From: Candidatus Fusicatenibacter intestinigallinarum
GTDB lineage: Bacteria; Bacillota; Clostridia; Lachnospirales; Lachnospiraceae
Length of the DNA: 64,000 nt
Assembly: GCA_019119555.1 (NCBI GenBank)
Contig: DWWU01000044.1
Span: forward strand, 16,898-80,897
Reading direction: 5' to 3'
The notes below the pieces were generated by a model. It worked only from the letters and a program-made list of their open reading frames with translations. It had not been told where the DNA came from and did no database searches. A program made the translations under genes and the position numbers. This document shows, in pieces, positions 8,021 through 62,042 of this stretch (within the stretch, counting starts at the first letter, position 1; each line of letters opens with the position of its first letter).

Positions 8021-8104
8021 ATACCGCTCCTTTCCCTCCTGCCTGTGCTGTCTTCCGTTCCTGCAAGCCCGATACAGACACATTCTATTCTATGCGCCCG
8101 GCGC

Positions 8105-8168
8105 GCGAGTGCGCATCCCGCGGAGCCTTTTCATATAACAGGGAACAAAGTTTCCTGCTATATAAAAT
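8105..8168 (-). repeat. Family B hairpin repeat, copy B1
   Basis: Shares the GCGAGTGCGCATCC / GCGGAGC block and a following hairpin (ATATAACAGGGAAC-type arms) with copies at 35851 and 38879. It directly adjoins the T-tract of the xerD terminator. Confidence 0.8.
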
Positions 8169-8198
8169 CCAGGCGGGCTTTGCAGAAAAGCCGCCTGG
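8169..8198 (-). terminator. xerD terminator
   Basis: Stem CCAGGCGG/CCGCCTGG with further pairing inside; on the minus strand it is followed by ATTTTATAT, where the family B repeat begins. Confidence 0.7.
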
Positions 8199-8202
8199 AT
8201 CC

Positions 8203-27399: not shown

Positions 27400-27420
27400 T
27401 TGTTTCCCTTTCTGTTTATT

Positions 27421-27456
27421 TATATAACATGGAGCAAAGTTCCCTGTTATATAAAA
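27421..27456 (-). repeat. Family B hairpin repeat, copy B2 (hairpin only)
   Basis: Arms TATATAACA.../...TGTTATATA with the GGAAC-type centre of family B. It lies between the T-tract of the asp23 terminator and the thyX ribosome binding site. The GCGAGTGCGCATCC block is missing. Confidence 0.65.
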
Positions 27457-27457
27457 G

Positions 27458-27504
27458 AAAACCGCGAAAGGTCAGCCAAATTTCTCAACCATCCCCCGCG
27501 GTTT
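27458..27504 (-). terminator. asp23 terminator
   Basis: Minus strand: AAACCGCG ... CGCGGTTT with additional internal pairing, followed by TCTTTTATAT, which runs into repeat B2. Confidence 0.8.
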
Positions 27505-31614: not shown

Positions 31615-31749
31615 CGTTACAGTTCAGCCAGGTCTGTGCATTCACTGCACAGACCGTATGAAAACGCAGAGCCTGCGGGCATCCGGCCCATCGCGAAGCG
31701 ATTTTCAATGGCCGGATGCCGTAACCGTTCAGCTGGCTGAACTGTTACG
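31615..31749 (+). repeat. Family A repeat, full copy A5 (135 bp)
   Basis: Starts CGTTACAGTTCAGCCAG and ends CTGGCTGAACTGTTACG (inverted ends, one mismatch). Inside: hairpin GTCTGTGCA/TGCACAGAC, then hairpin GGCATCCGGCC/GGCCGGATGCC, then the terminal palindrome. Flanked by TTGCTT on both sides (31609-31614, 31750-31755), a possible target duplication. Its right end supplies the stop codon of the small gene at 31745-31972. Confidence 0.92.
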
Positions 31750-35700: not shown

Positions 35701-35787
35701 TTTTTTTGATTTCTTTTCGTCCTGCTGCCCTCGTTCTATCCACTGCAAAGCATGGTCAGAGAACGCAGTTTCCTGTGACAGAGTAAA

Positions 35788-35835
35788 GAGTTTCGCTTGC
35801 GGAACTCCCGCGCCGAGCGCGGTCGCTTTAGCGAC
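35788..35835. repeat. Three consecutive short hairpins
   Basis: GAGTTTCGC/GCGGAACTC (35788-35807), CCGCGC/GCGCGG (35808-35822) and GTCGCT/AGCGAC (35822-35835) follow each other with almost no spacing, just before repeat B3. The gene-free stretch 35573-36081 holds the rpiR promoter, these hairpins, B3, a terminator and A6. Confidence 0.7.
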
Positions 35836-35850
35836 AGATTTCTGCTCCAC

Positions 35851-35914
35851 GCGAGTGCGCATCCTGCGGAGCGCTTTTGTATCACAGGGAACCGTGTTCC
35901 CTGTGATACAAAAA
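35851..35914 (-). repeat. Family B hairpin repeat, copy B3 (best copy)
   Basis: GCGAGTGCGCATCC, GCGGAGCG, then a perfect 14-bp stem GTATCACAGGGAAC/GTTCCCTGTGATAC (35879-35892 with 35896-35909) and a CGT loop. On the minus strand it begins in the T-tract of the terminator at 35916-35986. Confidence 0.88.
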
Positions 35915-35915
35915 A

Positions 35916-35986
35916 CGTTCAGATTCCTGAGAAGATCGGAAAACTTTCTGCTGAAATTTCCGGATCCTCTCAGGAACCTGAACGTC
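35916..35986 (-). terminator. Terminator of the heavy-metal domain gene
   Basis: Minus strand: ACGTTCAGG-TTCCTGAGA pairs with TCTCAGGAAT-CTGAACGT, with an inner TCCGGAAA/TTTTCCGA stem, followed by TTTTTTG. Confidence 0.75.
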
Positions 35987-38878: not shown

Positions 38879-38940
38879 GCGAGTTCGCCTCCCGCGGAGC
38901 GTTTTGTATCACAGGAAACTGTGTTTCCTGTGATACAAAA
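38879..38940 (-). repeat. Family B hairpin repeat, copy B4
   Basis: GCGAGTTCGCCTCC, GCGGAGCG, then stem GTATCACAGGAAAC/GTTTCCTGTGATAC (38906-38919 with 38923-38936). It runs into the T-tract of the terminator at 38938-38980. Confidence 0.85.
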
Positions 38941-38980
38941 ACCCCTGACGCCAAGGTTTCTGCCTCAACATCAGGGGTTT
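38938..38980 (-). terminator. Terminator of the DUF2298 operon
   Basis: Minus strand: AAACCCCTGA/TCAGGGGTTT stem followed by TTG at the start of repeat B4. Confidence 0.8.
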
Positions 38981-52064: not shown

Positions 52065-52199
52065 CGTTACAGTTCAGCCAGGTCTGTGCATTCACTGCAC
52101 AGACCGTATGAAAACGCAGAGCCTGCGGGCATCCGGCCCATCGCGAAGCGATTTTCAATGGCCGGATGCCGTAACAATTCAGTGGTCTGAACTGTTGCG
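52065..52199 (+). repeat. Family A repeat, full copy A10 (135 bp)
   Basis: Nearly identical to A5 over its first 115 bp, including hairpins GTCTGTGCA/TGCACAGAC and GGCATCCGGCC/GGCCGGATGCC. The right palindrome is diverged (AATTCAGTGGTCTGAACTG). Its right end encodes the last codons and stop of the decarboxylase gene. Confidence 0.92.
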
Positions 52200-55117: not shown

Positions 55118-55252
55118 CGTTATCGTTCAGCCAGGTCTGTGCATTCCCTGTACAGACTGTATGAAAACGCAGAGCCTGTGGGCATCCGGCCCATCGCGAA
55201 GTGTTTTTCAATGGACGGATGCCGTAACAGTTCAGCTGGCTGAACTGTTACG
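55118..55252 (+). repeat. Family A repeat, full copy A11 (135 bp)
   Basis: Same length and order of hairpins as A5 and A10, with scattered changes (for example CCCTGTACAGAC and GAAGTGTTTTTC) that weaken the inner stems, but with a perfect right palindrome. It ends 29 nt before the DUF1292 ATG. Confidence 0.92.
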
Positions 55253-58889: not shown

Positions 58890-58929
58890 TGTATTTTCTG
58901 TACCTCCTTACATTTTCTGACACAACTAA

Positions 58930-58958
58930 AATATAGTAAAAAATGCAGGGGATGTCAA
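58930..58958 (-). promoter_or_regulatory. M18 aminopeptidase promoter
   Basis: Minus strand: TTGACA (58953-58958), 17-nt spacer, TATATT (58930-58935). Confidence 0.75.
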
Positions 58959-58975
58959 CACAGAAGGCACAAGAT

Positions 58976-59052
58976 CGGCGGGCATCCAACCCATCGCGAA
59001 GCGATTTTCAATGGCCGGATGCCGTAACAGTTCAGCCAGCTGAACTGTTACG
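58976..59052 (+). repeat. Family A repeat, right half, copy A15
   Basis: GGGCATCCAACCCATCGCGAAGC ... ATGGCCGGATGCC hairpin followed by a perfect terminal palindrome (CGTAACAGTTCAGC/GCTGAACTGTTACG arms). Confidence 0.85.
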
Positions 59053-59157: not shown

Positions 59158-60522
59158 TTATGATTGTATTTCAAAAATCTGCACATCGCCGCTGCCCTCC
59201 AGCAGGACACGGTCATAAGGCGCTTCCGGATAAACAGCCATTGTGATCGGGATCAGCCCGTCGTCCGCAAGAATCTCCAGCACGGAGACATCAAAAATCA
59301 ATTCCATCTCCCCGTCTCTTCTGTATCGCGGAACCCTCACGCTGGAGTATTCCGGCATTTGATACTGTTCGTGAAACTCCCTCTCGCCTGCTATTGTACG
59401 GTCGACAAAGATTTCATCCTCCGTCACCTGAATCACCAGTTTCTGCCCCAGCGCATTGGCCAATGTAATCTTTTTGGTACCGCTCACCTTCATTCCAAAC
59501 GTATCCGTATAGATCCACTGTTGTCCGTCCGCCGGCCGTCCAGAAACACCGGTCAGGCCGTTTCCGGCGAAACCTGCAGCAAGCCGGTATCCATGATCTG
59601 TCTTCACCACTCGCAGTCTTCGCGCCAGCGTCATCTGTCCGCAGTATTCCCCGGTGGGCGTCTCATTGGCATATCCCCAGTTCATCGCCCAGCCCATAAA
59701 CAGCGGCTCGTCCAGGTTCTGAAACGTCACGCCCGCGTAATTGTCAAAGCCGAAATCGATCCACAATGGTCTGTCTTCTTCCTGCTGAAGGATGAAGCGG
59801 TCACCGTCAAAATCGCCAATAAAGTACTGGGTCCGGCATCTTCCGTCTTCCGTCGTTGTCGTCATGCTTACGATCAGCACCCACAGCCGCTTTCCGTCTT
59901 CCGCTTCCACCTGAAACAGATCCGGGCATTCCCAGATCCCCGAAGCCTGATTGCCTTTCGGACCGAATTCTCCGGTTTTTTCCCACTCTTTCAGGTTTTC
60001 TGACGCGTAAAAATAAACCCTGTCTTTCGCCGCCAGAACAAGCCCCCAACACTTTCTTACCGGATTGTAAAATACCTTCGGGTCACGGAAATCAGAGATC
60101 CCCGGATTCGGTATCACCGGATTCTGATAAGATTTTTCAAAATGAACGCCGTCCGTACTGTAGGCGATACTCTGCTGTTCCAGGCCGTGTCTGCCATGGT
60201 TGGTATAGACCGCCACGATCGGCGGGCACTCTTTCGTACCATACCCGGATGTGTTTTCCCGGTCATACGCACAGCTGCCGGAAAAGATCACGCCCAGCTC
60301 ATCCGGATACAGCGCAATCGGCTTGTGTTCCCAGTGAATCAGATCCCTGGAAACCGCATGCCCCCAGCACATAGGTCCCCAGTTGGGAGCTTTCGGATAA
60401 TGCTGATAAAATAAATGATAGATTCCATTGACGTATACCATACCGTTCGGATCGTTGGTCCACATGGACGGCGGGGTAAAATGAATGCGGGGTCTGTAGT
60501 CTCTGCTTCCTTTTGTGCTCAT
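59158..60522 (-). CDS. GH32 family hydrolase (sucrose/fructan), first copy
   Basis: Predicted beta-fructofuranosidase (invertase, levanase or inulinase type) of 454 residues. The five-blade propeller carries the nucleophile in MWTNDPNG, the transition-state aspartate in FRDPKVF and the acid/base glutamate in IWECPDLF; a C-terminal beta-sandwich follows (about 330-454). No signal peptide, so it is intracellular and would hydrolyse imported sugars or sucrose phosphate. It is a close tandem duplicate of the next gene, both opening MSTKGSRDYRP, 75 nt apart. AAGGAG precedes the ATG. Confidence 0.93.
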   Translation of the reverse strand: MSTKGSRDYRPRIHFTPPSMWTNDPNGMVYVNGIYHLFYQHYPKAPNWGPMCWGHAVSRDLIHWEHKPIALYPDELGVIFSGSCAYDRENTSGYGTKECPPIVAVYTNHGRHGLEQQSIAYSTDGVHFEKSYQNPVIPNPGISDFRDPKVFYNPVRKCWGLVLAAKDRVYFYASENLKEWEKTGEFGPKGNQASGIWECPDLFQVEAEDGKRLWVLIVSMTTTTEDGRCRTQYFIGDFDGDRFILQQEEDRPLWIDFGFDNYAGVTFQNLDEPLFMGWAMNWGYANETPTGEYCGQMTLARRLRVVKTDHGYRLAAGFAGNGLTGVSGRPADGQQWIYTDTFGMKVSGTKKITLANALGQKLVIQVTEDEIFVDRTIAGEREFHEQYQMPEYSSVRVPRYRRDGEMELIFDVSVLEILADDGLIPITMAVYPEAPYDRVLLEGSGDVQIFEIQS

Positions 60523-60597: not shown

Positions 60598-61959
60598 TTA
60601 CGGCGCGCTGCTGATCCACACTTCTCCGCTGCCCTCCGTCACAAGTCTGTCATAGGGCTGTGTCGGATAGAACGTCAGCGTAATCGGAACAGCGCCGTCG
60701 TCCGCCAGAATCTCTGCCACGGATACATCAAAAATCATCACCAGTTCCCCGTCTTTTCTGAGGCGCGGAACTCTCAGACGGGAATACCTCTCTGTCCCGA
60801 AAGATTCCTGAAATCCTTTTTCGCCGGCGCTGCTGCGGTTCACAAGAATTTCATCCTCTGTCACTTCAACCGTCAGCTGCTCTCCATTTCCATTGGCAAA
60901 AACAAGTTTCTTTGTTCCCTTCAGGCGAAGAGCAAAAGTTTCGCTTTTCAGTTCCTTCTGCTCCCCGACAGGTTCCATCTCTGCGGTGAGTACGTCCGTT
61001 CCGGCAAACCCGGAAATCAGACGCAGGCCTTTTTCCGTTTTTCCCGCATGCAGCTTTCTCCCCAAGGTCATCTGCCCACAGTACTCCCCGGTGGGCGTCT
61101 CGTTGGCATACTCCCAGTTTGAAGCCCATCCGATCAGAACAGGTTCTTCCGTATTCTGGAAAGTCACTCCGGCATAATTGTCGAAACCGAAATCCAGCCA
61201 CATTGGTTCCTCTGATTTTTCTGTAACCGTAAAACGGTCGCCATCGAAGTCCCCGAGAAAATACTGGGTGCGGCTGCGTCCGTTTTCCGTTGGCATCAGC
61301 ATACTGACCACAAGCACCCACAGGCTGTCCCCGTCCTCCGTCTTTACCCGGAACAGATCCGGACACTCCCAGATGCCGGGAGAATGATTTCCCTCCGGGC
61401 CAAATTCCCCGGTCTTTTCCCAGTGTTTCAGATCTTCCGAACTGTAAAAATGCACCCGGTCACCGGCCGCAAGCACCAGACTCCAGCAGTCTTTTACCGG
61501 ATTATAGAAGGCTTTCGGGTCACGGAAATCCCGGAGCCCCGGATTCGGTATCACCGGATTGTGAATGGTTTTTTCGAAATGTACCCCATCGGTACTGTAA
61601 GCCAGGCACTGGCGTTCCAGTCCGTCCGTCGCATGGTTCGTATACAACGCTACAAGGGGAGGATTTTCTTCCGTGCCATATCCGGATACATTCTTCCGGT
61701 CATAGACACAGCTTCCCGAATAAATATATCCCATCTCATCCGGATACAGGGCAATGGGAAGATGTTTCCAGTGCAGCAGATCTTTGGAAACCGCATGCCC
61801 CCAGTGCATCGGTCCCCAATGTGCTTCTTTCGGATAATGCTGATAAAACAGATGATAGGTTCCGTCCACATATACCATTCCGTTCGGATCGTTGATCCAC
61901 ATCGACGGCGGGGTAAAATGCAGCAGTGGTCTGTAATCTCTGCTTCCTTTCGTACTCAT
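60598..61959 (-). CDS. GH32 family hydrolase (sucrose/fructan), second copy
   Basis: Paralogue of the preceding gene with 453 residues and the same architecture: nucleophile in MWINDPNG (Ile replaces Thr of the other copy), FRDPKAF, acid/base glutamate in IWECPDLF and a C-terminal beta-sandwich. The frame is open upstream but the ATG at 61959, with AAAGGAG, gives the start shared with its duplicate. Both are downstream of a sugar-binding lipoprotein, pointing to uptake and hydrolysis of fructo-oligosaccharides or sucrose. The copies differ more in the C-terminal half, which may reflect different chain-length preference. Confidence 0.93.
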   Translation of the reverse strand: MSTKGSRDYRPLLHFTPPSMWINDPNGMVYVDGTYHLFYQHYPKEAHWGPMHWGHAVSKDLLHWKHLPIALYPDEMGYIYSGSCVYDRKNVSGYGTEENPPLVALYTNHATDGLERQCLAYSTDGVHFEKTIHNPVIPNPGLRDFRDPKAFYNPVKDCWSLVLAAGDRVHFYSSEDLKHWEKTGEFGPEGNHSPGIWECPDLFRVKTEDGDSLWVLVVSMLMPTENGRSRTQYFLGDFDGDRFTVTEKSEEPMWLDFGFDNYAGVTFQNTEEPVLIGWASNWEYANETPTGEYCGQMTLGRKLHAGKTEKGLRLISGFAGTDVLTAEMEPVGEQKELKSETFALRLKGTKKLVFANGNGEQLTVEVTEDEILVNRSSAGEKGFQESFGTERYSRLRVPRLRKDGELVMIFDVSVAEILADDGAVPITLTFYPTQPYDRLVTEGSGEVWISSAP

Positions 61960-62042
61960 AAATGCTGTTTCTCCTTTCCTCTGTCTCATTTTGCGCAGCC
62001 GCCTGATCCGGACAGCCGCTTTCAACCATCTGTGGGCAGGAA

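What the first reader, a model, noticed from the sequence alone, without database searches (positions are those of the whole stretch)
35851..35986. Family B hairpins sit in the T-tract of Rho-independent terminators, four times out of four
The repeat GCGAGTGCGCATCC-GCGGAGCG plus a GTATCACAGGGAAC-type hairpin occurs at 8105, 35851 and 38879, with a hairpin-only copy at 27421. In each case, read on the minus strand, a gene's terminator stem is followed by its T-tract and the repeat hairpin begins in or right after those Ts (xerD, the HMA gene, the DUF2298 operon, asp23). The arms have compensating changes between copies (GGGAAC/GTTCCC versus GGAAAC/GTTTCC), so the stem is conserved as structure. 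This suggests either an element that targets terminators or a functional 3'-end RNA structure.
Basis: partly seen in the sequence, partly recalled or inferred. Interest (0 to 1): 0.7.

Follow-up and report, generated by a model that had tools for sequence, protein, structure and literature searches.

The report
Jumping element that lands behind terminators
A small DNA element found many times across a family of gut bacteria sits, mostly the same way round, right behind the signals that end gene transcription, and it shares its end sequence with a known class of jumping genes that is likely to carry it there.

Summary
The B unit is the right half of a ~130-bp multi-hairpin element. On the minus strand a gene terminator precedes the hairpin in all four window copies. 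A model finds at least 36 places in this genome and matches in 89 of 200 sampled genomes of its family. A stem directly follows the element's right end in 83 of 117 copies, against 19 of 117 on its left. Sites include tRNA terminators and T-box attenuators (five called by Rfam, four more by sequence). At the sites compared, relatives lack the element but have terminators, so the T-tracts are the host's. A 1.6-kb IS91-family (Y2/HUH) transposon carries the same right-end sequence (TTTCCTAT...AAAAAA), and a hairpin follows it in 6 of 6 resolved copies. Best reading: B is a non-autonomous passenger of an IS91-type transposon that targets intrinsic terminators; its own left end, hairpin plus T-rich tract, looks like its target. 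Movement by that enzyme is inferred. I did not find the transposase in the part of this genome I held. Several element-rich genomes lack Y1 transposases, group II maturases or reverse transcriptases. What the conserved core does is unknown.

The parts
35788..35915 (+). Full-length copy of the element (right end abuts the terminator of the minus-strand HMA gene)
   Evidence: R1 model match G000:C29:52685-52814 = window 35788-35917, 143 bits
35788..35807 (+). H1: left-end hairpin GAGTTTCG-CTTG-CGGAACTC; on the minus strand hairpin followed by a T-rich tract
   Evidence: fold and alignment
35808..35864 (+). Core: long-range stem P2 (..CGAGCGCGG / ..CGCGAG) enclosing H3 (GTCGC-TTTA-GCGAC)
   Evidence: compensatory changes, one copy from each of 37 genomes, 323 of 333 cells paired, shuffled maximum 291
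35865..35873 (+). Mini-hairpin TGC-GGA-GCG before the T-run
   Evidence: 31 of 39 genomes paired, shuffled maximum 21
35875..35915 (+). H5: right-end palindrome TTTTGTATCACAGGGAAC-CGT-GTTCCCTGTGATACAAAAAA; its 3' arm corresponds to the end shared with the IS91-type transposon
   Evidence: end comparison
35916..35984 (-). Terminator stem of the HMA gene, directly beside H5
   Evidence: sequence
35758..35783 (+). Degenerate second H5 half left of H1
   Evidence: sequence
8104..8167 (+). Copy lacking the left half (mini-hairpin and H5), beside the terminator of the recombinase gene (stem 8167-8200)
   Evidence: partial match 55-126
38879..38941 (+). Copy lacking the left half, beside the terminator of the DUF2298 gene (stem 38942-38977)
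27420..27456 (+). H5-only copy beside the terminator of the asp23 gene (stem 27459-27504)

Best explanation
B is a ~130-bp element that lies, with the same end facing the stem, directly behind intrinsic terminators in most copies, and it is likely a non-autonomous passenger of an IS91-family (Y2/HUH rolling-circle) transposon, which shares its right-end sequence and its place beside terminators and would insert it into the T-tract. Shown here: distribution, structure, terminator adjacency, sites without the element in relatives, and the right end shared by element and transposon. Inferred: the transposase acts on B in trans. Its own left end (hairpin followed, on the terminator strand, by TTTTTT or TTTNTT) would be read as the stop site of rolling-circle transfer, and host terminators (hairpin plus T-tract) would be hit because they look like that stop site. 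The right-end hairpin H5 would be recognised as a single strand of the + sense. The host would keep a working terminator because its stem and T-tract stay on the near side of the insertion.
For: Terminator stem directly right of the element 83/117 vs 19/117 left. Copy number 0 to 36 among 7 genomes of one genus. Site of the 35788 copy lacks it in the three congeners compared, of six with matches there, and an E. oxidoreducens site lacks it in a sister genome. IS91-type transposon: Y2_Tnp 1.8e-37, Zn_Tnp_IS91 3.5e-25. Its right end AATTTCCTATTAAA[C/T]AAAAAA or a close variant is followed by a hairpin in 6 of 6 resolved copies (two of the six right ends were located by a scan for A-run plus stem, which favours this result). 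Right ends of 71/118 B copies match these ends at >= 75%, 0/118 shuffled, 0/118 displaced. Left end of the transposon is A6 plus hairpin, like B's AAnAAA plus H1. B sits in the T6 of the transposon's left end in two Butyrivibrio genomes. Left tetranucleotide GAAC, CAAG or GGAC in 23/107 copies, 1-4/118 at six control offsets; these are published IS801 targets (PMC3189936, passages). G.T exceeds A.C in H5 on the + strand in 22 genomes, the reverse in 4, equal in 14.
Against: The transposase was not found in the own-genome DNA that I held (424,318 bases counted with overlaps) nor in 20 contig-start stretches of the element-rich genome G103. Co-occurrence of IS91-type genes with B over genomes is untested. 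No filled/empty pair is close enough to give the insertion point to the base or to test for a target-site duplication. B's H5 is a full palindrome, while the Butyrivibrio transposon has a different, shorter hairpin before TTTCCTAT. The classical IS91 target is a tetranucleotide, not a T-tract, and 84/107 left ends carry none of the published ones. 34/117 copies gave no strong stem. H1 shows no strand bias (A.C more in 7 genomes, G.T more in 2; G.T 4, A.C 1 cells). RVT_1 genes show a weak association with B.
Confidence: 0.77

Rival explanations
1. B is a functional 3'-end RNA or terminator accessory kept by selection: its hairpins protect or separate transcripts, and it arose beside terminators for that reason.
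For: Compensatory changes in P2, mini-hairpin and H5 and fold energies well below shuffles (z -6.55 on the + strand).
Against: Copy number jumps between close relatives; sites lack it in relatives; copies sit behind T-box attenuators in leaders of aminoacyl-tRNA synthetase genes; the right end is shared with a transposon. H5 lies beyond the point where either terminator would release its RNA (established knowledge, not tested).
Confidence: 0.08
2. B is mobilised by another enzyme, for example a Y1 (IS200/REP type) transposase or a reverse transcriptase such as that of group IIC introns, which also insert behind terminators.
For: Same kind of target as group IIC introns (PMC4424553, passages); weak association with RVT_1 (45/63 vs 71/137 genomes, p = 0.013 at E < 1e-8).
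Against: No association with Y1_Tnp (p = 0.31) or GIIM (p = 0.18) over 200 genomes; of 27 element-rich genomes 12 lack Y1, 16 lack GIIM and 7 lack RVT_1; no B-like ends at 14 Y1 gene loci compared with B copies of the same genome, apart from one 13-base match.
Confidence: 0.09
3. B and the IS91-type transposon share only the target preference, and the similar right ends arose by convergence.
For: The A-run is common to target and end, and both sit beside terminators.
Against: The match includes TTTCCTAT outside the A-run (50/118 exact, 84/118 with at most one mismatch). AATTTCCTATTAAACAAAAAA is identical between a B copy of Butyrivibrio MC2021 (L328) and a transposon copy of Butyrivibrio AC2005 (L321).
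Confidence: 0.06

Closest known systems
IS91 family (IS91, IS801, ISCR; Y2/HUH rolling-circle transposons)
   Same: Partner transposon encodes Y2_Tnp plus Zn_Tnp_IS91; IS801 has no terminal inverted repeats, an essential right end, and miniature derivatives moved by one-ended transposition (PMC3189936, passages); part of B's left ends carry GAAC or CAAG
   Different: Target here is the T-tract of intrinsic terminators rather than a lone tetranucleotide; B carries no gene and has a conserved multi-hairpin core
Group IIC introns
   Same: Insert at intrinsic terminators (PMC4424553, passages)
   Different: Ribozyme and reverse transcriptase; B has neither, and GIIM/RVT_1 genes are absent from several element-rich genomes
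Pneumococcal BOX, RUP and SPRITE repeats
   Same: Small structured interspersed repeats, MITE-like, one BOX beside two T-box leaders (PMC3049150, passages)
   Different: Other sequences and other partner transposons; no fixed place in terminator T-tracts is described in the passages I saw
REP/BIME elements with RAYT (Y1) transposases
   Same: Palindromic, intergenic, many copies (PMC2817692, abstract start in the listing; otherwise recalled)
   Different: No association with Y1 genes
Helitrons
   Same: HUH rolling-circle elements with a hairpin near the 3' end (PMC4778049, abstract start in the listing)
   Different: Eukaryotic; analogy only

Membership tests
IS91 family (as non-autonomous member) | Right (ori) end shared with an autonomous IS91-family element | tested here: met
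   71/118 B right ends match at >= 75%, controls 0/118 and 0/118
IS91 family (as non-autonomous member) | Encodes or co-resides with a Y2/HUH transposase | tested here: inconclusive
   B encodes none; partner seen in Butyrivibrio genomes that also hold B and in four viral-collection loci; none in the own-genome DNA held or in 20 stretches of G103; whole genomes not searched for it
IS91 family (as non-autonomous member) | Target and left end share a short sequence (GAAC/CAAG type) | tested here: inconclusive
   Left tetranucleotide matches in 23/107; the target instead is hairpin plus T-tract, which the left end resembles
IS91 family (as non-autonomous member) | No target-site duplication | not testable with these tools
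   No empty site found close enough to read the junction to the base
Group II intron | Maturase/RT in the genome; catalytic domains | tested here: not met
   16 of 27 element-rich genomes lack GIIM; no Rfam match at gathering score on the element
REP/RAYT (Y1) | Y1 transposase in the genome, shared ends | tested here: not met
   12 of 27 element-rich genomes lack Y1; no B-like ends at 14 Y1 loci apart from one 13-base match
Classical MITE | Terminal inverted repeats | tested here: not met
   By reading of the alignment, ends are the H1 hairpin and the H5 palindrome, of unrelated sequence
Known Rfam RNA | Covariance-model match to the element | tested here: not met
   Window: 0 matches. 12 loci at E <= 1: matches on the element only below gathering score (e.g. 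mir-4679, E 0.025 to 0.26), taken as chance

The most novel reading that the evidence does not exclude
A lineage of IS91-type HUH transposases treats intrinsic terminators throughout the cell as copies of its own rolling-circle stop site, reading hairpin plus T-tract as single-stranded DNA. A gene-less passenger with a compensatorily conserved multi-hairpin core has spread through a bacterial family by exploiting this, landing even between T-box riboswitches and essential tRNA-synthetase genes without silencing them.
Probability: 0.55. Interest if true: 0.78.

Novelty: new variant of a known kind. Interest (0 to 1): 0.68.

Why it matters
Group IIC introns are a known example of mobile elements that target terminators. 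A DNA transposon family with the same target by a different chemistry, and a structured passenger of it in 89 of 200 sampled genomes of one family, would make terminators a general safe harbour. It would explain many intergenic hairpins in Lachnospiraceae. It also offers a testable model of how an HUH enzyme picks targets (the target resembles its own stop site), and natural insertions behind T-box attenuators show how much extra structure such leaders tolerate.

Tried and rejected
Y1 transposase as mobiliser: no association, no shared ends at 14 loci apart from one 13-base match. Group II maturase: no association. Any reverse transcriptase: weak association, absent from 7 of 27 element-rich genomes. 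Phage carriage: 0 exact matches of two element patterns in the viral collection. Rfam: nothing at gathering score on the element. rRNA reading: in note 3 I called a repeated 541-bp Butyrivibrio region an rRNA end; some searches showed it is the left end of an IS91-family transposon, and the report uses the corrected reading. Host-templated H5: arms differ strongly among copies in one genome (G002, core identity 0.87, arm 0.59) and copy an irregular tract in L124, L310 and L347, but H5 is near-constant in other genomes, so I did not adopt it. A first regular expression for the mini-hairpin was one base off and was replaced. H1 as target of further copies: only 4 of 118 copies have a strong hairpin left of H1, two of them H5-like, so this is a hint only. 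Rows dropped before the counts: loci L065, L070, L071, L077 (contig edge), L080, L081, L083 (contig edge, weak or overlapping) were not entered; L047 gave no sequence; L146 ran into Ns. Literature: ten searches, listings seen, passages of four papers; no paper on terminator-targeting IS91 elements appeared in these listings, which is not proof of absence.

Full report
Observation. On the minus strand each hairpin follows a gene-specific terminator stem and T-tract; the genes are a tyrosine recombinase, an HMA protein, a DUF2298 protein and Asp23. The 14-base start of B occurs 18 times in this 2.53-Mb genome, against 0 for the reversed pattern. Reading these 18 copies side by side showed that B is the right half of a longer element. 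In + orientation: A-rich start (consensus AAnAAA); hairpin H1; a GC-rich core; a mini-hairpin; TTTTT; palindrome H5; AAAAAA; then the terminator stem of the minus-strand gene. In the window only the 35788-35915 copy is full length.

Structure. The + strand folds far below shuffled sequences (z -6.55; minus strand -4.95). RNAalifold on 13 own copies gives 47 pairs, 6 with changes on both sides. Over other genomes the core stem is better read as long-range: CGAGCGCGG pairs with CGCGCGAG through a tandem G-A mismatch in one form and CTGCGGCGG with CCGCCGCAG in another, enclosing H3. In one copy from each of 37 genomes (104 of 118 copies parsed) 323 of 333 cells pair, counting sheared G-A; the best of 1000 shuffles was 291. 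The 5' window was chosen per copy for best pairing, which favours the observed value. The mini-hairpin NNN-GGA-NNN is paired in 31 of 39 genomes, shuffled maximum 21 (110 of 118 copies parsed, 82 of them paired). H5 shows more G.T than A.C mismatches on the + strand: 22 genomes against 4, 14 equal, p = 0.0005, and 53 against 27 cells in a second, partly overlapping set. This points to recognition of the + strand as a single strand. H1 shows no clear bias (A.C more in 7 genomes, G.T more in 2; 4 G.T, 1 A.C cells).

Distribution. A covariance model from 13 copies finds 36 non-overlapping places in the own genome at E <= 8.1e-10 (150 of 1279 first-look candidates scored, a few hits fused to another repeat). 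It matches in 89 of 200 genomes drawn from the family, own genome included (only 17 candidates per genome were scored, so copy numbers there are lower bounds). G103 and G177 are taken to be E. oxidoreducens and Kineothrix sp. MSJ-39 because contig lengths agree. In the own genus, copy number goes from 36 to 0 over 7 genomes. Two viral-collection scans found no exact match. A class-wide search did not complete, so spread outside the family is unknown.

Terminators. For 117 of 118 copies from 40 genomes (one ran into Ns) I scored a stem directly right of the A-run: 83/117 reach the threshold, against 19/117 on the left side, 22/117 at +100 nt and 92/585 shuffles. The test is gapless; by eye, misses include stems with bulges and also a few sites with no stem (for example L055, L125). 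tRNA genes precede the junction in 7 of 118. Rfam calls T-box leaders beside the element in 5 of 20 loci scanned (L050, L064, L114, L145, L159). In four more of those 20 (L030, L069, L079, L168) Rfam did not reach its gathering score, but the sequence before the terminator has the T-box GGTGGTA-like motif (motif recalled) and a synthetase gene follows. In these nine loci the element lies between that terminator and a gene start. NCBIfam best matches for the genes are ileS (own genome), pheS, leuS, cysS, proS, tyrS twice, metG and TrpX (several are partial and below full-length cut-offs). Unless another promoter lies downstream, these genes are transcribed through the element, so it should not be a complete block in that direction.

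Empty sites. At the 35788 site, the three congeners compared (G200, G204, G201, of six with matches) keep the flanking genes and a terminator with T-tract but lack the element; by reading, the 38879 site lacks it there too. The terminator sequences have diverged, so the junction cannot be read to the base. An E. oxidoreducens copy is likewise absent in a sister genome. Hence the T-tracts are the host's.

Mobiliser. Y1_Tnp, GIIM and RVT_1 were tested in the same 200 genomes. Y1 p = 0.31 and GIIM p = 0.18 for any match; RVT_1 p = 0.043, or 0.013 for E < 1e-8. Of 27 element-rich genomes (8 or more matches, E < 1e-8), 12 lack Y1, 16 lack GIIM and 7 lack RVT_1, so none looks required, although most are drafts. 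The lead came from Butyrivibrio AC2005: a 1590-bp repeat whose left end is A6 plus hairpin encodes a protein with Y2_Tnp (1.8e-37) and Zn_Tnp_IS91 (3.5e-25). Its right end, GGCGAAATTTCCTATTAAA[C/T]AAAAAA, is followed directly by a hairpin in the three copies with a readable right flank (two in AC2005, one in P18). Three more relatives (67, 64 and 52% identity) end in TTTCCTATAATGTAAAAA, TTTCCTATAAAGTAAAAAA and TTTCCTACAAAGTAAAAAAA, each followed by a hairpin: 6 of 6 resolved. Two of these ends were found by a scan for A-run plus stem, so that part is not blind. L383 is cut before its right end. B's right ends match these ends at >= 75% in 71/118 copies, shuffled 0/118, displaced 0/118. B and transposon therefore share right end, place and orientation; both left ends are an A-rich run plus a hairpin. 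In AC2005 and VCD2006 a B copy sits in the T6 of the transposon's left hairpin, that is, in a hairpin-plus-T tract that is not a gene terminator.

Mechanism. In the IS91 family the right end starts transfer and the left end, or a sequence like it, stops it; for IS801 the left-end tetranucleotide GAAC is also a target, and miniature fragments move (PMC3189936, passages). Applied here (inference): the stop site is hairpin plus T-tract, so intrinsic terminators are its look-alikes, and an element with the right end and a stop-like H1 can be carried. The published tetranucleotides GAAC, CAAG or GGAC stand at B's left end in 23 of 107 copies, 1-4 of 118 at six other offsets; A-richness explains part of this, and 84 of 107 carry none of them. 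I could not find the transposase in 424,318 bases of own-genome stretches, counted with overlaps, nor in 20 contig-start stretches of G103; the rest of these genomes was not searched for it.

Relation to known things. It works like group IIC introns in its target (PMC4424553, passages) but is not one. It resembles pneumococcal BOX/RUP/SPRITE repeats in style (PMC3049150, passages). I file it as a likely non-autonomous IS91-family derivative with a new target habit. What the conserved core does is open: binding of the enzyme, DNA folding during transfer, or a transcript function are all possible.

Noticed in passing
window 31615-31749, 52065-52199, 55118-55252, 58918-59052 and 14 sites of GTAACAGTTCAGC..GCTGAACTGTTAC: A second, larger family of modular hairpin repeats (TCTGTGCA..TGCACAGA, GGCATCCGGCC..GGCCGGATGCC, GTAACAGTTCAG..CTGAACTGTTAC); some B copies of the own genome are fused to it (L044, L046).
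   Followed up: no
L310 (Butyrivibrio NC2002), L124 (G177), L347 (G002): The inner foot of H5 copies an irregular host tract, over ~15 bases in L310, as if templated by snap-back synthesis.
   Followed up: partly
L054, L134-L137, L346-L353 (G002): H5 arms differ strongly between copies (median arm identity 0.59 in five copies) while the core stays at 0.87, yet each H5 stays palindromic or nearly so.
   Followed up: partly
L333, L334, L336, L337, L342 and L064: Variants with extra hairpins inserted in the core or in H3, the same ~54-base insert in two Butyrivibrio genomes, as in loop expansion of structured nucleic acids.
   Followed up: no
L030 (own genome, C33:56788-56917): Copy between a T-box-like terminator and the start of ileS; a natural insertion in an essential leader.
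   Followed up: yes
L146, L147 (G196): Head-to-tail copies: an H5 with A-tract directly before the next H1.
   Followed up: partly
window 59158-60522 and 60598-62025: Two adjacent minus-strand frames share 69-72% identical stretches (59562-59861 vs 60999-61298; 59177-59349 vs 60614-60786), probably a tandem gene duplication.
   Followed up: no
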